A stretch of DNA of 48,683 nt from Corallococcus carmarthensis (GTDB lineage: Bacteria > Myxococcota > Myxococcia > Myxococcales > Myxococcaceae): the NCBI RefSeq assembly GCF_003611695.1, contig NZ_RAWE01000056.1, positions 1 through 48,683 on the forward strand, in the 5' to 3' direction. Of the stretch, positions 1,499 through 39,985 are shown piece after piece. Within the stretch, counting starts at the first letter, position 1. Every line of letters begins with the position of its first letter. The notes beneath the pieces are model-generated. The model worked only from the letters and a program-made list of their open reading frames with translations, did no database searches and was not told the DNA's origin. A program made the translations under genes and the position numbers.

Positions 1499-2461
1499 AT
1501 GCCAGAAGGGTCCGCTGCACTCCAGCTCCAGGTTGGAGACCGGGTCGTCTACCCCAACCAGGGGGTCTGTCGCGTCGCCGCCATCGATGTGAAGGAAGTG
1601 GCGGGGCAGAGCCTCACCTTCGTCACCATGCGCCGCGAGGAAGACGGCGCGGTCGTGATGGTGCCGCAGGGAAAAATCATCTCCATCGGAGTGCGCAAGG
1701 TCGCCAGTCCCGCGGACGTGGAGGAGATCTACGCGTTCCTCCGCTCGGACAGCGACAAGGCGGACCTCGACTGGAAGCAGCGCGCGCGCACCAACCTGGA
1801 CCGCATGACCCAGGGTGGAATCCTGGGCCTGGCGGAGGTCGTCAAGGGCCTCCAGGTCCTGAGTGAGCTGCGTCCGCTGCCCACCAAGGAGCGCGAGCTC
1901 TACGACAACGCACGGCACCTGCTGGTGTCGGAGGTCGCCGCCGCGCTGGGCACCGCCGAGGCCAACGCCGAGGACTCCATCGACATCGTCCTCTTCCCGC
2001 CCGGGAAGGAGCGTCCCAAGCGCACCGCCGCGGAGTTCGCGCGGCCCGGTGGCGACGAGGACGACATGGACCTGGACGGCGACCTCATGGGTCTGGAGGG
2101 CGGAGAGCTGGACCTGCCCTCGGACGAGGAGCCGCCGGCCGAACCCGAGGAGGAGTCCTCCGAGGAAGGTGCCGAGGAGGAAGGCGGCGAGGAGGCGGCC
2201 GAGGACGCCCCCAAGAAGCGCGGCCGTCCGCCCAAGGCCAAGCCGGACGAAGGCGCCGAACCCGCCGCTCCCAAGAAGCGCGGCCGTCCGCCCAAGCCGA
2301 AGCCGGAGGTGGTGGCGGCGGAGGGTGCTGAACCCGCCGCTCCCAAGAAGCGCGGTCGTCCGCCCAAGGCCAAGCCGCCTGAAGGCGACACGCCCGCGGA
2401 GCCCGCCGCTCCGAAGAAGCGCGGCCGTCCGCCCAAGGCGAAGCCCGCCGAGGACGAGTGA
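1499..2461 (+). CDS. carD: CarD: RNA-polymerase-binding global regulator with HMGA-like AT-hook tail
   Basis: The protein has 320 residues. Residues 1 to about 165 form a CarD/CdnL-type domain (start LQLQVGDRVVYPNQGV, then a helical bundle), the module that contacts the RNA polymerase beta subunit. An acidic linker rich in Asp and Glu (about 185-235) is followed by four AT-hooks with the core KKRGRPPK, starting near residues 239, 259, 283 and 306. This bipartite layout defines Myxococcus CarD, which acts with CarG and many ECF sigma factors in light-induced carotenogenesis and development. The ATG at 1499 is chosen because MPEGSA matches the conserved family start as I recall it; an open frame extends back to 1445. 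carG follows after 91 bases. Identification is very secure. Confidence 0.97.
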   Translation: MPEGSAALQLQVGDRVVYPNQGVCRVAAIDVKEVAGQSLTFVTMRREEDGAVVMVPQGKIISIGVRKVASPADVEEIYAFLRSDSDKADLDWKQRARTNLDRMTQGGILGLAEVVKGLQVLSELRPLPTKERELYDNARHLLVSEVAAALGTAEANAEDSIDIVLFPPGKERPKRTAAEFARPGGDEDDMDLDGDLMGLEGGELDLPSDEEPPAEPEEESSEEGAEEEGGEEAAEDAPKKRGRPPKAKPDEGAEPAAPKKRGRPPKPKPEVVAAEGAEPAAPKKRGRPPKAKPPEGDTPAEPAAPKKRGRPPKAKPAEDE

Positions 2462-2552
2462 ACCGCAGGACTCCACGGCCCTCCCGGTTGCCCGCGTCGC
2501 GCGTGAGCGCGCGCCCGGCACCGCGAGGGCCTTCCCGCCGAGGTGACGCCCC

Positions 2553-3065
2553 GTGATTCGCGTCGTGACGCTGGACCCCTTCGACGACAAGCAGCTCGCC
2601 AAGTTCAACCGCACGCTCTACACGGCCTTCGGCGTGGGCAGCGAGCACAGCGGCTCCGCGGAAGTCCCCGCGGGCATGTCCGAGCCCCTGGACGCGGAGA
2701 AGCTGCTCGACGAGGTGAAGGGCATCCGGGCCTACAAGGACGACAAGGTGCTGCTGCTCACCTCGCGCAAGCTGAAGGACCGCGACCTGCCCAGCGGCAA
2801 GGCGCCCACGTCGGGCTTCGCGAGGTACGGCAAGGACCGGGCGGTGCTCACCATCGCGCCGTTCAAGGACCTGGAGACGGGCTACAAGGCCATCGCGCGC
2901 CACGCGCTGCACCAGCTGGGCACGCTCTGGGAGCTGCACCACTGCCTGGATCCGCGCTGCTCGATGTACCCGCCCTGGACGCCGTCCTTCAACCAGGGCG
3001 ACCACATCTTCTGCACCTTCTGCCGCGAAAAGAGCGAGCAGAAGATCCGTCTTGCCAAGTCCTAA
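2553..3065 (+). CDS. carG: CarG: zinc-binding partner of CarD, inactive archaemetzincin-like
   Basis: The protein has 170 residues and a GTG start preceded by GAGG. Its C-terminal third carries an H/C-rich array: HALHQLGTLWELHHC, then CLDPRCSM, then CTFC. This resembles the archaemetzincin zinc signature (HExxHxxGxxHCx4CxM...CxxC), but Gln follows the first aligned His where the catalytic Glu should be, and a Thr sits at the next zinc His. That agrees with CarG being a structural zinc protein without protease activity. In Myxococcus CarG binds CarD, does not bind DNA itself, and is needed for CarD function. The gene directly follows carD, the known arrangement. Its last 14 bases overlap the next gene. 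Confidence 0.94.
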   Translation: MIRVVTLDPFDDKQLAKFNRTLYTAFGVGSEHSGSAEVPAGMSEPLDAEKLLDEVKGIRAYKDDKVLLLTSRKLKDRDLPSGKAPTSGFARYGKDRAVLTIAPFKDLETGYKAIARHALHQLGTLWELHHCLDPRCSMYPPWTPSFNQGDHIFCTFCREKSEQKIRLAKS

Positions 3066-19497: not shown

Positions 19498-21111
19498 CTA
19501 CCGGTTCATCGAGCCCAGGAACTCCGCGTTCGCCGCCGTCGGACGCATGTGCTTGAGCACGAACTCCATCGCGTCGATGGGGGTGAACGGGTGGAGCACC
19601 TGGCGCAACGCCGTAATGCGCACCAGGTCCGACTGAGACAAGAGGAGCTCCTCCTTGCGGGTGCCGGATTTGTTGATGTCGAGCGTTGGGAAGATGCGCT
19701 TCTCCATCAACTTCCGATCCAGGACGATTTCGGAGTTACCCGTGCCCTTGAACTCCTCGAAAATCACCTCGTCCATGCGGCTGCCGGTGTCGATGAGCGC
19801 CGTGCCGATGATGGTGAGGCTGCCGCCCTCTTCGATGTTGCGGGCCGCGCCGAAGAAGCGCTTGGGCTTGTGGAGCGCGTTGGCGTCCACGCCGCCGGAC
19901 AGAATCTTGCCGGACGCCGGCACCACCGTGTTGTAGGCGCGCGCCAGACGGGTGATGGAGTCCAGCAGGATGCAGACGTCGTACTTCTGCTCGACCAGGC
20001 GCTTGGCCTTGTCGATGACCATCTCCGCCACCTGCACGTGGCGCGTGGCGGGCTCGTCGAAGGTGGAGGACACCACCTCGCCGCGCACGCTGCGCTCCAT
20101 GTCCGTCACCTCCTCCGGGCGCTCGTCCACGAGCAGCACGATGAGGTAGACGTCCGGGTGGTTGCGGCTGATGGCGTGCGCGATGTTCTGCAGCAGCACC
20201 GTCTTGCCGGCCTTCGGAGGCGCCACGATGAGACAGCGCTGGCCCAGACCGATGGGACAGAACATGTCGATGATGCGCGTGGTCATCTCCGACGACTCGT
20301 GCTCCAGCTTGAGCTTGCGCGTCGGATAGAGCGGCGTGAGGTTGTCGAACAGGATGCGCTCACGCGCCGCGTCCGACATGGGGTCCGCGAAGTTGACCTT
20401 GTCCACCTTCTGGAGCGCGAAGAAGCGCTCGCCCTCGCGGGGCTGGCGGATGGGGCCCGTCACCGTGTCGCCGGGCCGCAGGTTGAAGCGGCGCACCTGC
20501 GACGGGGACACGTAGATGTCGTCCGGGGACGGCTGGTAGTCGCTGTCCGAGCTGCGCAGGAAGCCGAAGCCGTCGCTGAGCAGCTCCAGCACGCCTTCCG
20601 CGTGGACTTCGAAGCGCTTGTCCGCGATGCCACCCAGCAGCGCGAAGATGAGGTCCTGCTTCTTCAGACCCTGGTAGCCCTCGATGCCCGTGTCGTGGGC
20701 CATCTTCGCCAGGTCGACGATCTTCATCCGCTTCAGGTCATTGAGCTTGATGACCTGCATCGGGGTGCCGTCACGCTCGACCTCCGTGATGGCGGGGGAC
20801 TCGGTGGACTCCTGCGGAGCGGCCGGAGCGGCCTCCTCGGCGGGCGCCTCCTCCGTGCCGCGCAGCTCCTGGAGCTCGTCGTCGCGCACCGGGCGGGAGA
20901 TGGGCGTGAGCACCGGACGGGGCGCTTCCACGGCGACCTCGGGAGCCTCGGCCTCCTCGGCGGGAGCCTCCTCCCGACGGGCGGGCGCACGGCGCGAGCG
21001 GGGCGCGGGCTTCTCCGCCTCCTTCGCCGCGGCGCGCTTGCGACGGGGCTTCTCCTCCGCGGTGAACGAGGGCTGGACTACCTTCTCTCGGGGGGAACGG
21101 GCTTTGGCCAT
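19498..21111 (-). CDS. rho: Transcription termination factor Rho
   Basis: The protein has 537 residues, about 115 more than the E. coli protein. Residues 1 to about 105 form a Lys/Arg/Glu/Ala/Pro-rich low-complexity extension, followed by the N-terminal helix bundle ([16 protein letters not shown]), the cold-shock-like RNA domain (DGFGFLRS), the Walker A loop APPKAGKT (Lys303), Walker [13 protein letters not shown], the Q-loop/R-loop region and the HPF...DAMEF end. It is therefore an intact hexameric RNA helicase that ends transcription. The start MAKARS at 21111 is where the coding pattern begins; the open frame continues upstream. A candidate promoter lies about 210 bases upstream, leaving a long leader. 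Confidence 0.97.
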
Positions 21112-29878: not shown

Positions 29879-31954
29879 TCACCGCCCCACGGCGACCGGC
29901 GCCAGCCGGCCGATGGGGCGAATCTGCAGGTCTCCGTCCAGCTCACCGTAGGTGAGCACCGCCACGTCCGGGAACGGGCCCTCGCACAGCTTGCGCAACG
30001 GACGGCGGATGTCCGGAGCCGCGAGCAGCACCGCCCGGCCCCCGTTGGCGATCTGCCGCACCCCTTCCAGTATCTCCATGACGCGCTCAGGCTCCGGCGC
30101 GGGCCCCCGGGGACCGCTGGCGCGCAGCACCTCCTCCACTTCCGGATCCACGAGGTACGCGTACAGCGGGCCCGTGGGCGCGAACTGGTGGCTCAGGTAG
30201 CGGTGCAGGGCCTGGCGGCAGCGCTCGGCCAGGGCGGTCGCGTCCCCTTCGGTGGTGGGCGCCACGAGCGCCTCCAGGATGGCGCGCAGGTCGCGGATGC
30301 TCACCTGCTCCTGCACGAGCCGCCGCAGCACGTCCACCAGCAGCGGCAGCGGCACCTTCTGCAGCGCTTCCTTCACCAGCACGGGTGACTGGGCCTCCAG
30401 CCCTTCCAGCAGCCCCTGCACCTCCTGGAGCCCCAGCAGCGCGGCGGCGCGAAGGCGGAGCACGGACCGGAGGTGGTCCGCGATGAGCTCCGACGGCTTG
30501 CGCACCGGCACCTGGGCCAGCTCCAGCCGGGAACGGGCCCCCTGCCCCACGCGGCTGATGGGCCGCCCGCTGGCGGGCTCCACGGACGCCTCCGCCTGGA
30601 CCTCCAGGAAGGCCAGCTCGCCGGGAGGAACGAGCGCGTACAGGGCACCGGGCTGCACCACGCCGCCCCCCGCGGGCACTTCGTCCAGGAGGATGCGGTA
30701 CTCGCCCGGCCCCAGGTAGGCGGCGTGGGTCCGCACCCGGATGCCAGGGATGCGCACGCCCAGCTCGAAGAACAGCTCGTCGCGAACGGCGTTCAGCACC
30801 GTGTGCACGAAGGCGCCGCCGTCAGCCTCCGCGAGCGGCGTCAGCTGCGCGGACAGGTCCAGCGTGAGCGGCGTCACGCCGACCGGCGCCTTCGCACTCT
30901 CAGGAGGCTTGCCCGCGGCCCCAGCCGCCACGGCGGTCCCCGTGGAGGCCTCGTCCGTCGCCTGCGGCTTCTCCGGCGCCTGCCCCTTGCGCCGCAGCGC
31001 ATGGCCGAGCCCTCCGAGGCCCGCCGCCAGGACGAGGAAGGTCAGGTGCGGCATGCCCGGCATCAAGGCCAGCGCGACGCACAGGCCGGCGACGGTGGCC
31101 AGCGTGCGGAAGTCGCCGAAGAACTGGGAGCCAATCTCCGTCCCAAGCGAGTCCTCTTCCTTCTCCGACGCCACCCGCGTGACGACGAGGCCCGCGGCCA
31201 CCGCGATGCACAGCGAGGGCACCTGGGACACGAGCCCGTCACCGATGGCGATGAGGGCGAAGGTGGCGGCGGCCTCGGAGAAGGACTGGCCGTTCTGCAA
31301 CACGCCGATGAGGGTGCCACCCAGCAGGTTCACCGCGACGATGACGAGGCCCGCGACGACGTCGCCCTTCACGAACTTCATCGCACCGTCCATGGCGCCG
31401 AACATCTGGGACTCGCGCTCCAGGTCGCGCCGTCTCCGCCGGGCCATCGCCTGGTCGATGGCGCCCGCGCGCAGGTCCGCGTCGATGGACATCTGCTTGC
31501 CCGGCATGGCGTCCAACGTGAAGCGGGCGGACACCTCCGCGACCCGCTCGGCGCCCTTGGTCACCACCAGCAGTTGGACCAGCGTGAGGATGGCGAACAC
31601 CACCGCGCCCACCACGTAGTCGCCTCGCACCACGAACTCGCCGAAGGCCTGGATGACCTCGCCCGCATGGCCCTCGGAGAGCGCCAGCCGCGTGGACGAC
31701 ACGTTGAGCGACAGCCGGAACAGCGTGGTGAAGAGCAGCAACGTGGGGAACGACGTCACCCGCAGCGCGTCCTTCGCGTTCAGCGCCGCGACCAGCAGCG
31801 CCACCGCCGCGGCCAGATTCACCGCGAGCCCCACGTCGAGGAGCCACGCCGGCAGCGGGATGATGAGCGCCCCCAGCACCGCCGCCATCGCCACCGCGAG
31901 CACGACGTCCGAGGACTGGCGGGCCTTCAGCAAGACCTTCTTGAATGGGTGCAT
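29879..31954 (-). CDS. sctV: SctV/FlhA-family type III export gate protein
   Basis: The protein has 691 residues, family length. The N-terminal 320 residues hold about eight membrane segments with the FHIPEP-region signature: FPTLLLFTTLFRLSLNVSSTR, the AMPGKQMSIDADLRAG motif and GDGLVSQVPSLCIAVAAGLVVTR. The C-terminal 340 residues are the cytoplasmic ring that receives substrates and chaperones. It couples the proton gradient to protein export. The ATG at 31954 overlaps the sctU stop by one base (TGATG); a GTG at 31957 is the alternative. It is the last gene of the operon and converges on the HU/IHF gene. Confidence 0.94.
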   Translation of the reverse strand: MHPFKKVLLKARQSSDVVLAVAMAAVLGALIIPLPAWLLDVGLAVNLAAAVALLVAALNAKDALRVTSFPTLLLFTTLFRLSLNVSSTRLALSEGHAGEVIQAFGEFVVRGDYVVGAVVFAILTLVQLLVVTKGAERVAEVSARFTLDAMPGKQMSIDADLRAGAIDQAMARRRRRDLERESQMFGAMDGAMKFVKGDVVAGLVIVAVNLLGGTLIGVLQNGQSFSEAAATFALIAIGDGLVSQVPSLCIAVAAGLVVTRVASEKEEDSLGTEIGSQFFGDFRTLATVAGLCVALALMPGMPHLTFLVLAAGLGGLGHALRRKGQAPEKPQATDEASTGTAVAAGAAGKPPESAKAPVGVTPLTLDLSAQLTPLAEADGGAFVHTVLNAVRDELFFELGVRIPGIRVRTHAAYLGPGEYRILLDEVPAGGGVVQPGALYALVPPGELAFLEVQAEASVEPASGRPISRVGQGARSRLELAQVPVRKPSELIADHLRSVLRLRAAALLGLQEVQGLLEGLEAQSPVLVKEALQKVPLPLLVDVLRRLVQEQVSIRDLRAILEALVAPTTEGDATALAERCRQALHRYLSHQFAPTGPLYAYLVDPEVEEVLRASGPRGPAPEPERVMEILEGVRQIANGGRAVLLAAPDIRRPLRKLCEGPFPDVAVLTYGELDGDLQIRPIGRLAPVAVGR

Positions 31955-33000
31955 CACGTCTGTCTCCGTGGACGGTCGTCCGGCTCGCGCAGCTCCATCG
32001 CGGTCCGCAACACGACGGCCGCCGCCTGGTACAGCTCCTCGGGGATGGACTCTCCGACGTCGAAGTGGATGAGGCTGCGGGCCAGCGGCACGTCCCGGAC
32101 CACGGGGATGCCCTGCCGGCGCGCCTCCTCCTTGAGCGCGAGCGCGTCCTGCTCACGGCCCTTGGCCACGAGGTAGGGCGCGTCGTATTCGCCCGCGTCG
32201 TAGCGGAGCGCGACCGCGATGTGCGTGGGGTTGACGATCACGGCGGTGGCCTTCTGCACTCCACGTGCCGGACCGCCCTGCGCCAGTTGTCGATGCAGCG
32301 CCCTCCGTTGACCCTTGTGGCGCGGGTCGCCCTCGCTCTCCTTGTGCTCCCGTTTGACCTCTTCGCGGGTCATCATCAGCTCGTGCCGGTGCCTGCGCCG
32401 GGCGAGCGCGTAGTCCACGGCGCCGCACCCCAGCACCACCCACGCGAGTCGCGTCACCAGCGCCGCCAGCCTGCCGACCAGGAACTCCAGTCCCCGGGTT
32501 CCATCGAGCCATGCGGCCCGCAGCGCATCGGGGCCGACCGCCTCCACCTCGTTCCAGACGATGAGGGCCAGCAGTGCCGCCACGAGCAGCGCCTTGCCCA
32601 TCTCGACCAGCGGCCGGACGCTGCAGAGGCGTTTGAAGCCCGCCGCAGGGTTGATGCGCTCGAGCTTCGGCGCGGCATGGCGCGCGTCCAACTCAAATCC
32701 CACCGTAGCGACGGAGACGGCCAGCGAGGCCACGAAGGCCCCGCCCAGCGCGGGGCCACCCAGCCGGGCAGCGACCCAGGCACCCTCCTCCCATGCGCCC
32801 ACGAGGGTCTGCTCCAGCATCAACCGCGCGGCCCAGTCCCTCAGCCGTGCGAAGCCCTCTGGCGCGAACGCGATGAAGCCCAACAGCCCCCCCAGCGTCG
32901 CCGCGCTGGAGGACAACATCCGGCTGCGAGGATGCTGGCCCTTGCGCCTCGCATCGCGCAGCCGCTTCGCGGTGGGCTGTTCCGTCTTCTCTCCGCTCAT
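31954..33000 (-). CDS. sctU: SctU/FlhB-family export switch protein with NPTH autocleavage site
   Basis: The protein has 348 residues. The N-terminus has the family start (EKTEQPTAKRLRDARRKGQ), then four membrane segments, and a cytoplasmic domain with the self-cleaving NPTH motif at residues 257-260 (VIVNPTHIAVALRYD). Cleavage between N and P changes substrate class from early to late in known systems, so a working switch is predicted. The start overlaps the sctT stop as ATGA, and the end touches sctV. Confidence 0.95.
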   Translation of the reverse strand: MSGEKTEQPTAKRLRDARRKGQHPRSRMLSSSAATLGGLLGFIAFAPEGFARLRDWAARLMLEQTLVGAWEEGAWVAARLGGPALGGAFVASLAVSVATVGFELDARHAAPKLERINPAAGFKRLCSVRPLVEMGKALLVAALLALIVWNEVEAVGPDALRAAWLDGTRGLEFLVGRLAALVTRLAWVVLGCGAVDYALARRRHRHELMMTREEVKREHKESEGDPRHKGQRRALHRQLAQGGPARGVQKATAVIVNPTHIAVALRYDAGEYDAPYLVAKGREQDALALKEEARRQGIPVVRDVPLARSLIHFDVGESIPEELYQAAAVVLRTAMELREPDDRPRRQT

Positions 33001-33791
33001 CGGGAGACCTCGCCCAGCAGGGCCAGCGCACCTTCCGTCGAAGCCACGCCCGCGAGCAGCCGCTCACACAACAGCCCCACGCCCAGCCACAGCAGCGCGC
33101 CGCCCCCGAGGATGCGCAGTGGAGCCCCCAGCTCCTGGAGGTTCACCTGTGACGCGGCCCGGGAGGCAATGCCCAGGAAGCAATCCACCGCGAGCGACGC
33201 GGCAGCCACCGGGGCTCCCACCGCGAGCCCCGTGGCCATGGCGCCGCCCACCATCACCACCACGTGCAGGGCCGAGGCCTCCGTGGGCACGAAGGCCCCC
33301 AGCCGAACCACTCCGAAGCCGCGCAGCAGGGCCGAGAGGACCACCGGGAACAGCGCCCCCGACACCACCCTCGCCACCAGCAGGTGGTACAGCGCATCCC
33401 CCGTGGCTGACTCGCGGCTCCCCGCCAGCGGCAGGCTTGCCTCCGCCGAGGTCCCCCGAAACAGGTCGATGAAGCGGCCTCCCATTCTCGCCGCGTCGAA
33501 GGGCAGCGCGGACACGAGCCCCACGGAGACACCGTAGGCCAGCTCACGCACCACGAGTGCCGCCATCACGACTGGCGTCTCCACCGTGCCGCTGAACTCC
33601 ACCCCCGCTTCGACATGCAGGAAGAGCGACAGCGCCAGCACCAGGCCCAGTCGGACCGTCGTGGGCGCGGCCTGTCCCCCCAACAACGGACAGAGGAACG
33701 CGATGGGCACGAGCCGGGCCGCGCACAGCGCCACCGCGACGACGTGCGGTCCCAGTGAGAGGAGCTGTTCACCCAGCACGTCCGGGTTCAC
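32997..33791 (-). CDS. sctT: SctT/FliR-family export gate protein
   Basis: The protein has 264 residues with six or seven hydrophobic segments. The family pattern is visible in LCAARLVPIAFLCPLLGGQAAP, VRELAYGVSVGLVSALPF and the GRFIDLFRG motif near the middle. The C-terminus carries ASQVNLQELGAPLRILGGG, the FliR/SctT plug-side segment. It forms the export pore with SctR and SctS. The GTG start at 33791 is chosen because it makes a GTGA overlap with the sctS stop; the longer frame to 33893 lies within sctS. Confidence 0.92.
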   Translation of the reverse strand: MNPDVLGEQLLSLGPHVVAVALCAARLVPIAFLCPLLGGQAAPTTVRLGLVLALSLFLHVEAGVEFSGTVETPVVMAALVVRELAYGVSVGLVSALPFDAARMGGRFIDLFRGTSAEASLPLAGSRESATGDALYHLLVARVVSGALFPVVLSALLRGFGVVRLGAFVPTEASALHVVVMVGGAMATGLAVGAPVAAASLAVDCFLGIASRAASQVNLQELGAPLRILGGGALLWLGVGLLCERLLAGVASTEGALALLGEVSR

Positions 33792-34057
33792 AGCGCCACG
33801 TCCGCGATGAGCATGAGGAGTTGCTGGGTGAAGCGAGTGAGCTGACCCGCGATCCACGGACCCGCGAGCACCAGGGACAGCACCGCCGCGCACAGCTTGG
33901 GCACCACCGACAGCGTGCTCTCCTGCAACTGCGTCGTTGCCTGGAAGAGGCTCATCAGGAAGCCGACCACCAGGCTCGCGCCAATGGGCGGCAGCGAGGC
34001 GACCACCATCAACAGCAGGGCTTCACGCCCCAGGGTGAGCAGGACGTCCTGGGTCAT
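33788..34057 (-). CDS. sctS: SctS/FliQ-family export gate protein
   Basis: The protein has 89 residues, exact family length, with two hydrophobic helices (LLLMVVASLPPIGASLVVGFLMSL and the second ending in PWIA). The motif SLFQATTQLQESTLSVVPK between them is diagnostic for FliQ/SctS. The ATG at 34057 is 4 bases after the sctR stop. Confidence 0.94.
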   Translation of the reverse strand: MTQDVLLTLGREALLLMVVASLPPIGASLVVGFLMSLFQATTQLQESTLSVVPKLCAAVLSLVLAGPWIAGQLTRFTQQLLMLIADVAL

Positions 34058-34061
34058 GGCG

Positions 34062-34787
34062 TCACCGGTAACCGAGGATGAGTCCCCGCGCGAGCAGGGC
34101 CCAGCCATCCACGGCCACGAAGAGGAGGATCTTGAAGGGCAGGCTCACCTGGCCTGGCGACAGCGTCTGCATGCCCAACGCGAGCAACACGTTGGCGATG
34201 ACCATGTCGAGCACCAGGAAGGGCAGGAAGACGATGAAGCCAATCTGGAAGGCCTCCTTCAGCTCGGTGATGACGAAGGCCGGGATGACGACGAACAGGT
34301 CCGTCTCCTGCACCTGCTCCGACTCCTCCGGGGGACGCAGCTCGCGGGCCAGGTCCACGAAGCGGGCCCGCTCCTCCGGACTGCCGTGCTTCACAAGGAA
34401 GCCGCGCAGGGGCTCCGTCACCTGCTTCGCGGCGGAGAGGACCTGCGCTCCGGAGTGCACCTCGTCGTACGCCGCCTGTCCCGCGTCGTACATGCGCTCC
34501 ATCACCGGCGCCATGATGTGCCCCGTCAGCACCACCGCGAGCCCGGTAAGCACCAGCGTCGGCGGTGCCTGCTGCGTGCCCATCGCCGAGCGGGCCAGGG
34601 AGAGCACCACGGCGATCTTCGAGAAGCTCGTCAGCATCAGCACCGCGAACGGCAGCAGCGACAGGAGCGCGAGCATCCCCATCATCGCCAGCGGACTGCC
34701 GGCATAGGAGGCCTGCGACAAGGACGGCTCCGCGGCGAACGCGGTCGCGGGCAGGAACACGCCGCATCCCAATCCGAGGGCCTTCAT
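34062..34787 (-). CDS. sctR: SctR/FliP-family export gate protein
   Basis: The protein has 241 residues. A cleavable signal sequence (MKALGLGCGVFLPATAFAA) is present, as in FliP proteins; many injectisome SctR proteins lack one. Then come family motifs MLTSFSKIAVVLSLARSAMGTQ, the long periplasmic loop, and ITELKEAFQIGFIVFLPFLVLDMVIANVLLALGMQ. The start at 34787 overlaps the FliO-like stop as ATGA; the GTG at 34817 would lie inside that gene. Confidence 0.94.
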   Translation of the reverse strand: MKALGLGCGVFLPATAFAAEPSLSQASYAGSPLAMMGMLALLSLLPFAVLMLTSFSKIAVVLSLARSAMGTQQAPPTLVLTGLAVVLTGHIMAPVMERMYDAGQAAYDEVHSGAQVLSAAKQVTEPLRGFLVKHGSPEERARFVDLARELRPPEESEQVQETDLFVVIPAFVITELKEAFQIGFIVFLPFLVLDMVIANVLLALGMQTLSPGQVSLPFKILLFVAVDGWALLARGLILGYR

Positions 34788-35281
34788 CCTCCACCCCGCT
34801 TCCGGGATGCGCCGCACGCGGCCGTAGCCTTGGTCTGGCGCGCGCGAGGGAAGAGCACCGTAGGCTCCAGTTCCAGGTCCATGCGAGGTTTCACAGTCGG
34901 CCTGGGCCTGGATCCAGACAGCACCACCATGGCGCGCGTCTCATGGATCTCCGCGAAGGTGTCGCCGTAGGCCACGAGGTAGCGCCGTCCATCCGCCTCC
35001 ACGAGTGCGAGGCCGCAGCGCTGGGAAAGCCCCGTCCGGGAGACGATGCTCAGCGGCTCCAGCGCGGCTGCATCCGCGCTCCCGGCCGTACCTCCCTTGC
35101 GGAGCAACACCCAGCCCAGCCCCGCCAGCGCCATCGAGCCGATCAGCAGGCGCGAGGTGCCCACCAGAGACAGTCCCCCCAGTGGCGCGAGCGTCGCCAG
35201 CCCCACGAGCAGGGCCGACGCGAACAGCAGCCGGCCGCGTGGAGAGAACGAGGACAGCAACATGTTCACCGGTGCGCTCAC
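34784..35281 (-). CDS. FliO-like membrane protein of the type III export operon
   Basis: The protein has 165 residues. Two hydrophobic segments (about 17-37 and 44-60) are followed by a soluble part: LSIVSRTGLSQRCGLALVEADGRRYLVAYGDTFAEI. This is the FliO pattern, a short beta unit beginning with a basic-rich LG or GLSQR turn and ending in a bound-ligand-like G-x-x-L/F segment. It stands immediately before sctR, as fliO stands before fliP in flagellar operons. FliO aids FliP ring assembly and is usually missing from injectisome loci. GTG start overlapping the sctQ stop. The match is by pattern and position, so moderately sure. Confidence 0.7.
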   Translation of the reverse strand: MSAPVNMLLSSFSPRGRLLFASALLVGLATLAPLGGLSLVGTSRLLIGSMALAGLGWVLLRKGGTAGSADAAALEPLSIVSRTGLSQRCGLALVEADGRRYLVAYGDTFAEIHETRAMVVLSGSRPRPTVKPRMDLELEPTVLFPRARQTKATAACGASRKRGGG

Positions 35282-35523
35282 GGCAGCAACGCCAGGATGC
35301 GGGCGCCCACTTCGCCTTCGATCTCCACCAACTCCGCACGCGCGACCACCCGGTCACCCACGCGCAGCAGCACGGGGCTGCTCGCATTCACGTGCAGGGG
35401 CAGCAACGTGCCCGGCTTCAGCGCCGCCAGCTCCGACAGGGGCAACAGCAACCGCGTCAGTTCAATCTCCACGTCCACCGGGAGCGGCGGCATCGCCTCG
35501 CTCCGCTTGTTCGTCGCCACCAT
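35278..35523 (-). other. Predicted internally initiated SctQ-C product (81 aa)
   Basis: Within sctQ an in-frame ATG at 35523 is preceded by AGGAG (35534-35530) with an ideal six-base gap. The product MVATNKRSEAMPPLPVDVE onward contains only the C-terminal SPOA domain. YscQ-C and short SpaO arise in the same way and at about the same size, and bind the full-length protein. Predicted from sequence, not shown. Confidence 0.6.
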
Positions 35524-36432
35524 GTCCGACTCCTGTCGGGCCGCGTGCGAGTGCACGCTCCCTGTCGAAAAACCGTCCGCGAGAAACTCGCCCCGGAGCG
35601 CGAAGCCCCGGGTGATCAGCTGTCCCTTCCCCTCGAGCCGGCCGTCCCGGAGACGCACGCCCTCGAAAAGCACGACGTCTCCCTCGGCCAGCGAATCCAC
35701 GGCCGAGGCCTGCAACGGACTGCTCCCCACGAGGCAGCGCGCCGGGAGCGATGCCGCCAGCACCTGGGACGAGACCGCGCCTGCCAGCTCCACGGGCAGT
35801 TCCTGAAACGCGGTCTGCACGGCACGGGCGGGCAGGAGCACCCGTCCCCCCGCCGTCGTCCCCTCCACCGTCGCCGTCAGGGACACCGCCACGTAGGGCT
35901 GCCGTGCATCCACCCGCGTCAGCACGTCACCGCGCCGCATGGACACCGCGGACAGACGCGGTCCCAGCCTGCGCACCCATTCTCCGTGCCCACGGATCGC
36001 GGCCAGGGAGGAGAGCATCAGGTACACCAGCGTGGCCTCTTCCAGCCGCGTCAGCTCCGCCACGGGAGCCGGAGGCAGTCTCGTCCCCGCCAGCTTCGCC
36101 AGCGCCGCGAAGACCAGCGGCACCTCCAGCTCCACGATGGCGGTGCCGCCCACCGCTGACAGCTCCACCAGCGCGAACACCATGCCCACCGCCAGCTCGC
36201 GCTCCGGCTGGACCGCCGCGTCCACCAGGTGCCCCTCCACCTTGACCGCCGCGCCCACGTCCCGTGACAGCGCCGCGCCCACGTCGCGCAAGAGCTCCGC
36301 TCCCCAACGTCCCACCTGAGGCCGCCGCCCCAGCACCAGATGGGCGCGCGTGAGCCGGCGTGCCCCCGGACGGAATGGCCGCGTGGGCTTCTTCGCGGCA
36401 CTGGTGGACCTGACTGGATTCGTCGTTTGCAT
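35278..36432 (-). CDS. sctQ: SctQ/FliM-FliN-family C-ring (sorting platform) protein
   Basis: The protein has 384 residues. The last 75 residues form a SPOA domain (LPVDVEIELTRLLLPLSELAALKPGTLLPL), and a second, weaker SPOA-like stretch precedes it (about 215-285). The N-terminal 200 residues are a CheC-like or FliM-middle-like region. It forms the cytoplasmic platform that receives substrates. The ATG at 36432 has GGAG six bases upstream. An internal start predicts a separate C-terminal product, listed at 35278-35523. A 154-base gap holding an inverted repeat separates it from the gene before. Confidence 0.87.
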   Translation of the reverse strand: MQTTNPVRSTSAAKKPTRPFRPGARRLTRAHLVLGRRPQVGRWGAELLRDVGAALSRDVGAAVKVEGHLVDAAVQPERELAVGMVFALVELSAVGGTAIVELEVPLVFAALAKLAGTRLPPAPVAELTRLEEATLVYLMLSSLAAIRGHGEWVRRLGPRLSAVSMRRGDVLTRVDARQPYVAVSLTATVEGTTAGGRVLLPARAVQTAFQELPVELAGAVSSQVLAASLPARCLVGSSPLQASAVDSLAEGDVVLFEGVRLRDGRLEGKGQLITRGFALRGEFLADGFSTGSVHSHAARQESDMVATNKRSEAMPPLPVDVEIELTRLLLPLSELAALKPGTLLPLHVNASSPVLLRVGDRVVARAELVEIEGEVGARILALLP

Positions 36433-36520
36433 CCGGAGCTCCAAGACGGCGATGGGACACACGTCCCCTGTGCACGGCCATGGCCAGCGGGCCGGCTCGT
36501 GGAATCAGGGTGTTGGCAGG

Positions 36521-36576
36521 GGGTGGAGGTCCGTCATCGGGATGCGGCGTTCCCGGTTCGGGATGGCCCTCCACCC
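36521..36576 (-). promoter_or_regulatory. Inverted repeat in the only large gap inside the type III operon
   Basis: GGGTGGAGG (36521-36529) and CCTCCACCC (36568-36576) are perfect 9-base complements around a 38-base loop that contains a smaller CCCG-GTT-CGGG hairpin. It lies directly after the FliG-like gene and before sctQ, so it may be an mRNA processing or attenuation structure. Confidence 0.4.
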
Positions 36577-36586
36577 ATCAGGCCGC

Positions 36587-37066
36587 TCAGCGCAGGGCTT
36601 CGCGGATGCGCCGCTCCGCCACGGCGGTCAGGACCGGTGCGGCCTCTACCCGCGGCCCAGTGCCTTCCCACTGGGGAAACCGGCTGCGGTGGTACGGCGG
36701 AAGCCCGCTCAAGGCTTCCTGGCGCAGGGCTTCAGGAGCTGTCTCCAGGAAGAGAGCCAACCGGTTCGCGGCGTCCGCCCGCTCTCCGAACTCCACCGCC
36801 ACCTTGGCCTGCCGTTGCGCGGAGGGCATGGCGGCGAAGCGCTCCAGATGCCGCAGCGCCCTTCCCGCTTCCGCATCCACCAGCCCGCCCAGCAGCTCCG
36901 CGGCACGCTCCCGCCCCAGGACGCAGACGACCAGCGCGATGCGCTCCAGGGGCAGGGACAAAGCGGGCAGCGTGACGTCCGCTACCGTAGGCCGTGGTGC
37001 TTCCTTCCGAGACGGCAGGAGCTTCCGGGCCATGCGCAGCGCCCGTCCCACGCGTGTGGCTTCCAT
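36587..37066 (-). CDS. FliG-N-like protein in the SctK position
   Basis: The protein has 159 residues and is soluble. Residues 35-95 (LPLERIALVVCVLGRERAAELLGGLVDAE and the following helix to AVEFGE) resemble the FliG N-terminal domain, which in flagella binds the FliF ring: an aliphatic helix, an LG turn, and a Leu-rich helix with acidic end. The C-terminal part has a LFLETAPEALRQEALSGLPPYHRS helix pair. It lies 7 bases after sctJ, where injectisomes place sctK and flagella place fliG after fliF. The resemblance is weak and must be tested by profile search or structure prediction. Confidence 0.6.
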   Translation of the reverse strand: MEATRVGRALRMARKLLPSRKEAPRPTVADVTLPALSLPLERIALVVCVLGRERAAELLGGLVDAEAGRALRHLERFAAMPSAQRQAKVAVEFGERADAANRLALFLETAPEALRQEALSGLPPYHRSRFPQWEGTGPRVEAAPVLTAVAERRIREALR

Positions 37067-37073
37067 GGCGTGC

Positions 37074-37889
37074 TCAGGCCAGCTTGCGCGTGGAGCCCGG
37101 TGTCACCACCGGCCGCGCGGGCGTGGGCGGGGCAGGCGGTGCCACGGGAGGCTGCTCCGCCAGGGCCCGGTAGTGCCTCCAGCGCAGCGTCGTCCAGACG
37201 AGCGCTCCAGACAGCCCCGTCACCAGCACGCCCAGCAGGGCGAGCACCACGCGCAGCCGCAGCGGGACGGGTCCTCCCTTCGGGAGCGGCGCCTCCACGT
37301 GCGTCGTCACCTCGTCCACCAGCAGTGACACCGCCTCGGGTGACAGCCCTTCCACGCCCCCCGCGATGAGCTCACGCAGCGTGTCCTCCGACTTGCGCAC
37401 GCGCGCCGCGCCGCCGGGGGCCGTGCGCAGCATGGCCGAGGCCTTCGATGGCGTGGGTGCCTGCCCTGGCCTTGGGAGAGGTGGAACCACCAGGTGCACT
37501 CGCGCCAGCAGCACGCCGTCCACCGTCTGGAGCGTCTTCTCCAACTCGCGCTCCATCCCCCGGACCCGGCAGACCTGCTCCTCCAGCGGCGAGCGCACGA
37601 GCCCGCTTCCGCCAAACACGTCGCACCCCGTCTCCGCGGCGAGCCGGGGCAGGCCCAGCTCCGCCAGGATGCGCACCGCGTCCGAGGACTGCGCGTCCAG
37701 CACCTCGATGGCCCAGGTGGGCTTCTTGCCCGGCTCGGGCACCTTGCGCGCGTCGAGCCCCCGCTCGACAAGCACCGTCTGGAGTTCGTTGGCCTGACGC
37801 TCGTCGAGGCCGTGCTGGATGCGCTCCCGGCACGCGGTGGCGCCCAGGAGCAGGAGGAAACAGAGACAACGAAGGGGAGCGGAACGCAT
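37074..37889 (-). CDS. sctJ: SctJ/FliF-family inner-membrane ring lipoprotein
   Basis: The protein has 271 residues. A lipoprotein signal (LLLLGATAC, Cys20) is followed by the first ring-building motif (ERQANELQTVLVERGLDARKV), a linker, and the second (RGMERELEKTLQTVDGVLLARVHLVVP), both typical of SctJ. One membrane helix at about 222-243 and a Pro-rich cytoplasmic tail complete it. Length and lipidation match injectisome SctJ rather than the much longer flagellar FliF. It is 15 bases after the SctI-like gene. Confidence 0.92.
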   Translation of the reverse strand: MRSAPLRCLCFLLLLGATACRERIQHGLDERQANELQTVLVERGLDARKVPEPGKKPTWAIEVLDAQSSDAVRILAELGLPRLAAETGCDVFGGSGLVRSPLEEQVCRVRGMERELEKTLQTVDGVLLARVHLVVPPLPRPGQAPTPSKASAMLRTAPGGAARVRKSEDTLRELIAGGVEGLSPEAVSLLVDEVTTHVEAPLPKGGPVPLRLRVVLALLGVLVTGLSGALVWTTLRWRHYRALAEQPPVAPPAPPTPARPVVTPGSTRKLA

Positions 37890-37904
37890 GGAACGAAGGA
37901 CTCC

Positions 37905-38393
37905 TCACACCTGGGTCTGGAGGACCTGTTTGACGCCGCCGGTGGCCTTCTCGACGACCTTGCCGGCGAGATCGAGCTCCTGACTGGCGCGGTAGACGTG
38001 GGCCTGGAGCGCGAGCAGCTCCGAGGGACTGAACGTGCGGCCGGACTCGGCGAGCTTCAGGATGTGGTCCAGCCGCTGCTGCGCCTGCCCCACCCGGTCC
38101 AGCACCTCCACCGCCTGCTGACTTCGCGCCCCCTGGACCGAATCCACGCGGGCGCCCGGCTTCACCTCCGCGCAGCCCGCCTTCGCCCGCTCCACGCCGT
38201 CCGCCCGCGCCGTGCCAGCGGTGGCCTCGGTAGGTGTCCGCACCGGCTTCGGCGGCCCCTCCGTCGTCACCGGCACGGGGCGCGACGCGGGCGTGCGCAC
38301 GCCGTCCAACACCTTGCCGAAGGTCTCCCTGCCAGACTCCACCGCGGGCGAAGCACCCGCGCCGCCTACGGCTCCCAACTTGTCGATGGCCAT
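37905..38393 (-). CDS. SctI-like inner-rod protein
   Basis: The protein has 162 residues. The first 80 residues are Pro/Thr/Gly-rich and disordered, without a signal peptide, as in type III substrates. The last 40 form a helix (LLALQAHVYRASQELDLAGKVVEKATGGVKQVLQTQV, shown here only by its key LQ, Y, SQEL and final QVLQ positions) in the YscI/HrpB pattern. Such proteins polymerise into the rod that joins export gate and needle. Its place before sctJ supports this. Single Cys in the middle. The family call rests on the C-terminus only. Confidence 0.7.
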   Translation of the reverse strand: MAIDKLGAVGGAGASPAVESGRETFGKVLDGVRTPASRPVPVTTEGPPKPVRTPTEATAGTARADGVERAKAGCAEVKPGARVDSVQGARSQQAVEVLDRVGQAQQRLDHILKLAESGRTFSPSELLALQAHVYRASQELDLAGKVVEKATGGVKQVLQTQV

Positions 38394-38405
38394 CGCGAGC
38401 GCGCC

Positions 38406-38900
38406 TCAGCGGATGTTGTTGATGGCGGCCTTCGCCGAGTCGTGGCGAACCTTCATGATGTTGGAGATGGCGTTGTGCTCGCGGCTCTCCTTCTGCATCT
38501 CGTTCTGGAGCGACAGGTAGGCCATGTTGAACTTCTGGCCGTCCGCGGCCATCAGCTTCTGCGCCTCCAGCAGGTCCCACGCATCCCCCTGCCCCGTCGC
38601 GCCTCCTGTGCCGGCTGTCGTCCCCGCCGTGCTCGCGCGCGCCGACATCGCGGAGGCACCGCCCGCCGCGGGCACCGACGACACCGCTTCGGCCGGCACG
38701 GCCGCGGACACCGTGCCGGCCAGCGTGGACACCACCGCGCTGGAGATGGCGCCCGACGGCAACATGCCGCCCACGAGCCCCGCGCCCGTGCGCACCACCT
38801 CGCGCGCCGCTCGCGCCAGCGTGGGGCCGAACTCCGTCTTCGGCGTCTGACGCGCGATGGAGGGGGCGATGCTCAACGACGGGATGCGACGGTCTTCCAA
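38406..38900 (-). CDS. Helical type III operon leader-gene product, possible filament or secreted subunit
   Basis: The protein has 164 residues. There is no signal peptide. A Gly/Ala/Ser/Thr-rich middle (about 35-105) with a weak hydrophobic stretch precedes a C-terminal amphipathic helix of about 55 residues (KLMAADGQKFNMAYLSLQNEMQ, then SNIMKVRHDSAKAAINNIR). A terminal helix with Asn and Lys/Arg at the end is seen in needle, rod and translocator subunits. The TTG start at 38900 has GGAGG six bases upstream, while no such site serves the ATG at 39032. First gene of the operon, 12 bases before the SctI-like gene. Not recognised; export substrate is an inference. Confidence 0.62.
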   Translation of the reverse strand: MEDRRIPSLSIAPSIARQTPKTEFGPTLARAAREVVRTGAGLVGGMLPSGAISSAVVSTLAGTVSAAVPAEAVSSVPAAGGASAMSARASTAGTTAGTGGATGQGDAWDLLEAQKLMAADGQKFNMAYLSLQNEMQKESREHNAISNIMKVRHDSAKAAINNIR

Positions 38901-39477: not shown

Positions 39478-39879
39478 TCAGTCCGCGGCCGAGCGGGCCG
39501 CGCGCAGCCGCTCCACCAGGTCCATCAGCTCCGCGCCCCGGAAGGGCTTGTGGATGTAGCCGTCCGCGCCCGCCTGCGTCGCGCTCTCCACGTCCGCCTT
39601 CTTCGCCTTCGCGGTGAGCATGTAGAGCGGCACCTTCGCCGTGACGGGGTCGCTCTTCAGGATGCGGCACACGGAGACGCCGTCCAGCTGCGGCAGCACC
39701 ACGTCCATCAGGATGAGGTGGAAGGTCCGGTCGCGGGCCAGCTTCAGGCCCTCGATGCCGTTGGCCGCGCACACCACGTCCACCGCGCCGTCGCTCAACA
39801 TGGAGCGCACCAGCTCGCGGATGACGGGCTCGTCCTCGACGAGCAGGATGTGGAAGGGTGCCTGGGCGTTGCCAGCCAT
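39478..39879 (-). CDS. Single-domain response regulator
   Basis: The protein has 133 residues: one receiver domain with acidic pocket E15-D16, phospho-acceptor Asp59 in LMDVVLP, Thr in YMLTAK and Lys in IHKPF. No DNA-binding or enzymatic output, so it works like CheY or as a phosphotransfer step. The ATG at 39879 has GAGGA a few bases upstream. It is on the bat operon strand 128 bases past batE, but a hairpin lies between, so it is probably transcribed separately or by read-through. Confidence 0.85.
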   Translation of the reverse strand: MAGNAQAPFHILLVEDEPVIRELVRSMLSDGAVDVVCAANGIEGLKLARDRTFHLILMDVVLPQLDGVSVCRILKSDPVTAKVPLYMLTAKAKKADVESATQAGADGYIHKPFRGAELMDLVERLRAARSAAD

Positions 39880-39985
39880 GGTTCCTCGGGGCCCCTCGTA
39901 GGCCATTGCCCTGACGACGTCCAGCGAAGCGACGCCTCCCGGTAGCCCCTCTGTACGAAAGCGGTCCACCGCCGGATTTCCCACG

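What the first reader, a model, noticed from the sequence alone, without database searches (positions are those of the whole stretch)
29879..38900. Type III export operon mixing injectisome and flagellar parts
Eleven minus-strand genes encode a complete export gate (SctR, S, T, U, V), a lipidated SctJ of injectisome size, SctQ and an SctI-like rod. A FliO-like gene precedes sctR and a FliG-N-like gene follows sctJ, as in flagellar operons. Myxobacteria of this group have no flagella. No ATPase, stator, secretin, SctD or filament gene is visible in the window. Non-flagellar type III systems without a secretin have been reported in Myxococcales and placed at the base of the injectisome tree; this locus fits that class and shows retained flagellar-type components. 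What it exports, and whether it crosses the outer membrane, is open.
Basis: partly seen in the sequence, partly recalled or inferred. Interest (0 to 1): 0.85.

Follow-up and report, generated by a model that had tools for sequence, protein, structure and literature searches.

The report
Second myxobacterial type III export operon
This is a known kind of stripped-down protein-export machine in predatory soil bacteria, related to both flagella and bacterial injection needles; closer reading suggests that it still carries a needle-type gene, although this class is described as needle-less.

Summary
In detail: eleven minus-strand genes (29879-38900) encode F-I-J-G-Q-O-R-S-T-U-V. I take this as the "short" secretin-less type III locus of Myxococcales published in 2012 (PMC3459982), not the "long" predation T3SS*, which here lies on contigs C150 and C324. 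FliO in both Myxococcus xanthus systems is also published (PMC12248157). Three points go beyond what I found in print. (1) The first gene (38406-38900) is of a needle/pilin-like family: hhalign 84% (its family) and 96% (long-locus homologues) against true needles, nine control families under 2%, 0 of 200 shuffles as good. The literature calls these systems needle-less. (2) The gene after sctJ is weakly FliG-like; its long-locus counterpart is a FliG homologue, although the 2012 paper reports no FliG. (3) The operon has no ATPase. By hand count, 36 of 36 genomes with both systems have fewer FliI/YscN ATPases than export gates, and short-only genomes keep a separate sctL-sctN module, so one ATPase may act in trans and be shared. 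No SctC-type secretin over cut-off and no flagellin were found. Substrates and outer-membrane crossing stay open.

The parts
38406..38900 (-). F: needle/pilin-like family protein (SctF/HrpA-like), 164 aa; variable middle, highly conserved C-terminal ~60 aa
   Evidence: Family A3, weak Pfam hits: HrpF 12 of 18 (best 0.0018), T3SS_needle_F 9 of 18 (0.0035), HrpA_pilin 4 of 18 (0.0064); the window row is below cut-off. hhalign vs seven PF09392 needles 84.2%, nine control families <2%, 0 of 200 shuffles. Present in 25 of 25 short loci that reach it; dN/dS 0.18-0.38 over 62 codons
37905..38393 (-). SctI-like inner rod
   Evidence: PF17001 3e-4, NF038054 0.01, both below cut-off; the family profile hits the SctI of the long locus at 1.5e-39
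37074..37889 (-). SctJ, lipoprotein ring subunit of injectisome size, 271 aa
   Evidence: TIGR02544 1.4e-38; Cys20 in a lipobox-like context read (such a pattern in 22 of 27 short-locus SctJ matches)
36587..37066 (-). G: FliG-like adaptor (inferred), 159 aa, at the fliG/sctK position
   Evidence: FliG_N 0.0098, FliG_M 0.0074; hhalign vs long-locus G 10-34% depending on trimming and direction, vs FliG 1.7-4.8% in N-domain register, 0 of 200 shuffles for both; best control family reaches 1.6%
35278..36462 (-). SctQ, C-ring/sorting-platform protein with FliN-type C-terminal domain
   Evidence: TIGR02551 5.2e-29, PF01052 1.6e-16
34784..35281 (-). FliO-like export-gate assembly protein
   Evidence: TIGR03500 9.2e-5; 16 of 16 submitted family rows hit FliO
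34062..34787 (-). SctR export gate (ORF open to 34817)
   Evidence: NF009438 1.8e-75
33788..34057 (-). SctS export gate (ORF open to 34108)
   Evidence: PF01313 6.5e-25
32997..33791 (-). SctT export gate (ORF open to 33893)
   Evidence: PF01311 2.9e-32
31954..33000 (-). SctU switch protein with the NPTH autocleavage motif
   Evidence: PF01312 2.2e-94; NP[T/D]H in 30 of 32 short-locus SctU
29879..31957 (-). SctV export gate
   Evidence: PF00771 1.4e-207; tree

Best explanation
The operon encodes the inner-membrane and needle-base part of the short Myxococcales non-flagellar type III system. Shown by sequence: a complete export gate (SctR, S, T, U, V) with a cleavable-type SctU, a lipoprotein-type ring protein SctJ, the C-ring protein SctQ, a FliO-like protein, an SctI-like rod, and a needle/pilin-like protein F encoded just before the rod gene, as in injectisome operons (that order is recalled). 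Inferred: SctJ forms a ring without a SctD of its own. The FliG-like protein bridges the SctJ tail to SctQ as FliG bridges FliF to FliM/FliN, a flagellar solution kept where injectisomes use SctK with SctD. The ATPase stalk comes in trans from the single sctL-sctN-fliJ module, which in genomes with both systems sits in the long locus and would serve both gates. The gate exports rod and F, and F polymerises on the rod into a short needle or pilus. With no dedicated secretin it is either periplasmic or uses another system's outer-membrane pore.
For: F: hhalign vs seven needles 84.2% (short F) and 95.8% (long F), short vs long F 97.8%, nine control families <2%, the SctI families at most 1.11%, 0 of 200 shuffles. 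A clean profile of short plus long myxobacterial rows, run on 27,473 ORFs, hits 13 non-myxobacterial ORFs at E<=1 (best 2.1e-6); by contig coordinates 7 of the 13 are PF09392 matches, and they are all 7 of those 11 matches that lie in DNA searched. G: long-locus G hits FliG_C in 5 of 5 rows (best 1.8e-8, first row over cut-off), PDB FliG 1.7e-4, flagellar FliG 96.5%; short G aligns with it in register. ATPase: exactly one over cut-off, next to the long locus, in seven near-complete dual genomes; fewer ATPases than gates in 36 of 36 dual genomes; five genomes with only the short gate detected keep sctL-sctN elsewhere; the 12 Myxo ATPases in the tree form one clade (99), the short-only ones outside the long-locus ones. 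No SctC-type secretin over cut-off.
Against: Window F does not pass the Pfam or NCBIfam needle/pilin cut-offs (14.5 bits vs 29.4; HrpA model E 5.6). A profile of short F alone hits no non-myxobacterial ORF at E<=1 and nothing in the PDB; its link to needles rests on hhalign and on long F. F has a ~100 aa N-terminal extension. Of the 13 outside hits of the joint profile, 6 are not PF09392 matches. Short G vs FliG alone (1.7-4.8%) is only just above the best control family (1.6%), its PDB match is E 3.4, and G of family f5 does not match FliG. The genome-wide FliG_C search did not list long-locus G in the window's genome or its 15 congeners at E<=0.001. Sharing of the ATPase rests on gene counts from related genomes. 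The 2012 paper counts the ATPase among genes common to both loci.
Confidence: 0.6

Rival explanations
1. F is an exported substrate (translocator- or effector-like) that shares only the needle-type C-terminal helix, an assembly or export signature; the system is truly needle-less and secretes proteins into the periplasm or hands them to another machine such as Kil/Tad.
For: F is longer than a needle with a variable N-terminal ~100 aa; window F scores below needle cut-offs; short F alone finds no outside homologue by HMMER. In several long loci F-like genes occur in three or four tandem copies with TPR genes near, as substrates with chaperones would.
Against: One copy directly before sctI in 25 of 25 short loci that reach it; a highly conserved C-terminus, which in my judgement does not suit a prey-facing substrate; needle rather than rod similarity.
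Confidence: 0.27
2. The gene after sctJ is an SctK-type or unrelated helical adaptor, and its FliG resemblance is convergent.
For: Direct FliG scores are weak and close to the best control; the position is also that of sctK in injectisome operons (recalled).
Against: No SctK-type family was reported for it at E<=10 nor for the 17 family rows at E<=1. The counterpart in the long locus at the same position is a FliG homologue.
Confidence: 0.37
3. The short gate needs no ATPase and is driven by proton motive force alone; the single ATPase belongs to the long or flagellar system.
For: No SctN-like gene in the 31 short loci L122-L152; the one hit in L016 lies 8.4 kb downstream where the window has Rho. 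Fewer ATPases than gates.
Against: Genomes in which only the short gate was found still keep an sctL-sctN module, e.g. G068, a single-contig genome with one gate and one FliI/YscN ATPase over cut-off about 1.7 Mb away.
Confidence: 0.25
4. The locus is a decaying relic of an injectisome.
For: Missing secretin, SctD and ATPase in the operon; an earlier annotation as a relic is reported in PMC3459982; seven short-type sctV matches among relatives contain one stop.
Against: Gene order conserved across genera and families, dN/dS below 1 for F, I and G, no stops in the window genes.
Confidence: 0.04

Closest known systems
Short Myxo NF-T3SS locus (Abby and Rocha 2012, PMC3459982)
   Same: Same group of bacteria, export gate, SctJ and rod, no secretin, conserved order, basal SctV position; I take the window locus as its orthologue (their sequences were not compared here).
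   Different: That paper reports no SctF and no FliG in Myxo systems and counts the ATPase among the common core genes; here F is needle-like, a FliG-like gene is present, and the ATPase is not in the operon.
Predation T3SS* of Myxococcus xanthus, MXAN_2434-2464 (PMC12075869, PMC10433427), taken here as the long locus
   Same: Paralogous gate (about 46% SctV identity), FliO-like gene, SctJ, SctI and SctQ; reported to lack a secretin.
   Different: The long locus has SctN, SctL, FliJ-like and FliK-like genes, a fuller FliG-like G, TPR genes, a small SctU C-domain paralogue and F-like genes. The other M. xanthus system is reported not to be involved in prey killing (PMC12248157, citing Thiery 2022, not read).
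Flagellar fliE-F-G-H-I-J-K-M/N-O-P-Q-R-flhB-flhA order (recalled)
   Same: Gene order and FliO; FliG-like gene after the ring gene; SctV and SctU homologous to FlhA and FlhB.
   Different: SctJ is of injectisome size, SctI and F are injectisome-type; no flagellin in this genome.
Injectisomes
   Same: Needle-like and rod genes next to sctJ; SctQ and SctR pass injectisome-model cut-offs.
   Different: No secretin, SctD or SctK identified in the operon (translocon genes not searched); SctV outside the injectisome clade.

Membership tests
Myxo (secretin-less) NF-T3SS, short variant | Complete SctRSTUV gate plus SctJ and SctI, no secretin in the locus | tested here: met
Myxo (secretin-less) NF-T3SS, short variant | SctV branches outside standard injectisomes, between them and flagella | tested here: met
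   grouping of short with long not rejected (AU p 0.586), but the exact order is weakly supported (77)
Myxo (secretin-less) NF-T3SS, short variant | Conserved locus order across Cystobacterineae | tested here: met
   mostly on genomes without names
Myxo (secretin-less) NF-T3SS, short variant | ATPase SctN among its genes | tested here: not met
   none in the operon; single ATPase elsewhere. I treat this as a correction to the description and not as exclusion, because short-only genomes keep an unlinked module
Type III needle family SctF (PF09392) | Score over the curated cut-off | tested here: not met
   window F 14.5 bits vs 29.4
Type III needle family SctF (PF09392) | Profile-profile homology to bona fide needles | tested here: met
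   supported through long F
Type III needle family SctF (PF09392) | Exported and polymerises into a needle | not testable with these tools
   needs experiment
FliG (PF14842/PF14841/PF01706) | N, M and C domains over the curated cut-off | tested here: not met
   short G only 0.007-0.01, N/M region only; the long-locus G row passes FliG_C
FliO (PF04347) | FliO domain, gene next to fliP/sctR | tested here: met
   16 of 16 submitted rows match at E<=0.1, gene adjacent to sctR; the window protein alone is below cut-off (19.1 vs 22)
Injectisome | SctC secretin and SctD | tested here: not met
   three secretins in the genome: PilQ, GspD and one that passes no cut-off, none over the SctC cut-off; six SctD-model hits, all below cut-off (best 49.3 vs 86 bits), none on the window contig
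Flagellum | Flagellin | tested here: not met
   hook and rod genes not searched

The most novel reading that the evidence does not exclude
Both myxobacterial type III systems, including the predation T3SS*, are not needle-less: they make needle- or pilus-type polymers through a secretin-free base. They keep a FliG-type link between ring and C-ring, and in genomes with both systems two export gates share one ATPase complex. They would be living intermediates between flagellum and injectisome.
Probability: 0.4. Interest if true: 0.85.

Novelty: new member of a known kind. Interest (0 to 1): 0.6.

Why it matters
The absence of a needle underlies how the predation T3SS* is described, and Kil/Tad tips have been proposed to stand in for the missing needle complex (PMC12075869, passages). 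A conserved needle-like gene in both loci gives a direct gene to delete or tag. A FliG homologue at the fliG position in a non-flagellar system bears on how the flagellar C-ring became the injectisome sorting platform. Two gates with one ATPase would, to my knowledge, be an unusual case of a shared type III motor.

Tried and rejected
Checked and set aside: an ATPase inside the window (the hit at 19582-20358 is Rho); a type III secretin; F as a second SctI rod (hhalign at most 1.11%); short G in the PDB (FliG at E 3.4); short F in the PDB (none); a sigma-70-type promoter (0 found) and intrinsic terminators (2 found, 2.6 expected); NCBIfam for F (HrpA model E 5.6 for the window, 0.0062 for L016); G of family f5 vs FliG (no similarity). 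The last shuffle control (long G N-part vs FliG N-part) crashed and is not used; that pair matched over only 31 columns. The iterated F profile took in one Lampropedia ORF, so I replaced its outside hits by the clean profiles. The PDB match of long F (4.9e-5) is a 43-residue chain that its depositors name a needle-protein co-chaperone; I suspect a needle fragment but did not verify it.

Rows dropped before counting. A1: 17 rows; near-duplicates L122, L123, L132 left out. A2: 5 of 6 (L168 left out). A3: 18 of 26 (L122, L123, L124, L128, L129, L131, L146, L150 left out). A4: 10 rows; near-identical tandem copies and the weakest hit L157 left out. A7: 16 of 41 FliO rows. Needle set: 7 of 11 PF09392 matches (L173, the best, missed by my ORF extraction; L181 a near-copy; L182/L183 a separate set). 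FliG set: 13 of 20 loci, by an ORF and motif filter. SctV tree: the window plus 82 of 121 extracted sequences, chosen by me. Dual genomes (36) were tallied by hand; 14 are the window's own genome and 13 congeners, G041 has a partial short sctV, G034 has a third gate but one ATPase, and at most 18 candidates per genome were scored.
Full report
What is there. The window is a whole 48,683-base contig (C482) of a 10.8 Mb genome in 530 contigs. Its SctV is 91% identical to that of Corallococcus sp. CA053C. That record and G002, listed as the same genus, share the same match coordinates, so the window is probably Corallococcus. Eleven minus-strand genes from 38900 down to 29879 read F, I, J, G, Q, O, R, S, T, U, V. 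Family searches confirm V, U, T, S, R, Q and J firmly, and I and O moderately. The first gene begins with TTG behind GGAGG. Neighbours are a Bat/VWA/TPR operon upstream, and BrkB, RNase E/G and, further down, Rho genes downstream.

It is the short Myxo locus. The genome holds a second FHIPEP gene on C324, and a second SctJ plus the only FliI/YscN ATPase over cut-off on C150. By content these are pieces of the long locus, which I equate with the published predation T3SS*. Abby and Rocha 2012 (PMC3459982; passages, section 9 in full) found a short secretin-less locus in all fully sequenced Cystobacterineae and a long one in three of them, at the base of the injectisome tree. My SctV tree of 83 sequences agrees: short systems form one clade (SH-aLRT 100) apart from flagella (100) and injectisomes (99); the long group has 99. 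The branching order among them is weak (77), and a joint short-plus-long clade is not rejected (AU p 0.586). A 2025 preprint (PMC12248157, passages) already reports FliO in both M. xanthus systems, and that only one of the two acts in prey disintegration.

Conservation. Of 32 short loci examined (L122-L152 and L016), 25 reach gene F, and F is present in 25 of 25; the other 7 end at a contig edge. The full order F-I-J-G-Q-O-R-S-T-U-V is seen in 16 of 17 loci of this family (L016 counted in). In the remaining one, L141, G and Q are both absent. In one f2 locus and seven f5 loci the rest of the order is the same but G is not found by the profile, although coding-like sequence sits in its place. 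dN/dS is 0.18-0.38 for the end of F, 0.11-0.50 for the core of G, and 0.24-0.68 for the C-terminal end of G.

A needle-type gene. Profile-profile comparison gives 84.2% (7.3e-6) for short F against seven needles, 95.8% (6.7e-9) for long F against them, and 97.8% for short against long F; nine control families, SctI included, stay under 2%. None of 200 column-shuffled needle profiles reached either needle score, and reversed profiles failed. A clean profile of short plus long myxobacterial rows, searched against 27,473 six-frame ORFs, hits 13 non-myxobacterial ORFs at E<=1, best 2.1e-6. By contig coordinates 7 of these 13 are matches of PF09392, the SctF needle family; they are all 7 of the 11 such matches that lie in the DNA searched. 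The other 6 are not in that list. Long rows alone find Lampropedia ORFs at 4.5e-6; short rows alone find no outside ORF at E<=1, so short F is tied to needles by hhalign and through long F. Pfam hits of single rows are weak but fall in three needle/pilus-related families; the window row is below cut-off, and no fold could be predicted. Published work states that these systems lack needle homologues (PMC10849154, PMC12075869, PMC10433427, PMC3459982; passages or one section read). I found no paper reporting SctF or FliG in them (searches; open-licence PMC papers only; Thiery 2022 and Konovalova 2010 not read).

A FliG-type gene. In the long locus the ORF between sctJ and sctL hits FliG_C in 5 of 5 rows, the first over the curated cut-off, PDB FliG at 1.7e-4, and flagellar FliG at 96.5% (7.3e-10). 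In a genome-wide search FliG_C hits lie on the same contig as the long sctV in 10 relatives and on the same contig as the FliI/YscN ATPase in 4 more, but none was listed at E<=0.001 in the window's genome or its 15 congeners. The long locus reads I-J-G-L-N-FliJ-like-FliK-like-Q-O-R-S-T-U, the flagellar order (recalled). Short G aligns with the N-terminal part of long G (10-34% depending on trimming and direction) and in register with the FliG N domain (1.7-4.8%); 0 of 200 shuffles reached either, but the best control family reaches 1.6%. I call short G FliG-like by inference, not a proven FliG.

The ATPase. Seven near-complete dual genomes each have exactly one FliI/YscN ATPase over cut-off, about 13-15 kb from the long sctV. 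Across the 36 dual genomes that I tallied, the number of such ATPases is below the number of gates: 27 have one, eight have two with three gates, and one fragmented genome has none. Of five genomes fetched in which only the short gate was found, all keep sctL-sctN away from the short locus, three of them with fliJ (G023, G027, G068; not seen in G021, G076); several of these assemblies are fragmented, but G068 is a single contig. The 12 Myxo ATPases in the tree form one clade (99), the short-only ones branching outside the long-locus ones. The simplest reading is one ATPase complex working in trans, shared where both systems exist. Gene counts cannot prove it.

Outer membrane. The genome's three secretins are PilQ, GspD and a third that passes no cut-off (possibly the Kil/Tad one, by size); none passes the SctC cut-off. 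The SctD model gives six hits below its cut-off, none on the window contig; a 2016 paper describes the Myxococcus SctD as an FHA domain plus a membrane segment only (PMC4768692, passage). Whether F stays periplasmic or uses another pore is open.

Verdict. The needle-like gene, the FliG homologue in the long locus with a weaker short counterpart, and the shared-ATPase pattern are the parts that would surprise specialists, and they are directly testable in M. xanthus.

Noticed in passing
L120 (C150 of the same genome), 2337-2618, minus strand: Right after sctU the long locus carries a 93-aa stand-alone copy of the SctU C-terminal domain without the NPTH motif; a similar gene follows sctU in other long loci.
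   Followed up: partly
L154 11386-13356; L159 4262-7305; L161 11827-13119: These long loci hold three or four near-identical tandem F-like genes between sctU and sctV, in two of the three on the strand opposite to sctV, with TPR genes nearby.
   Followed up: partly
L141 8052-9239: One relative (G037) lacks both G and SctQ in its short operon, SctJ being followed directly by the FliO-like gene.
   Followed up: no
genomes G016, G018, G019, G020, G031, G033, G037, G041: Eight genomes of the same family carry a third gate and a second FliI-type ATPase, seven of them also a strong FliG_C hit, so flagellar-type loci occur within this family.
   Followed up: no
L015: The SctV of a Myxococcota MAG branches next to the long clade (SH-aLRT 92); its locus was not read.
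   Followed up: no
window 39478-39930 (-): A response-regulator gene precedes the operon; a response-regulator hit lies upstream of F on the same strand in the f1 short loci that reach F.
   Followed up: no
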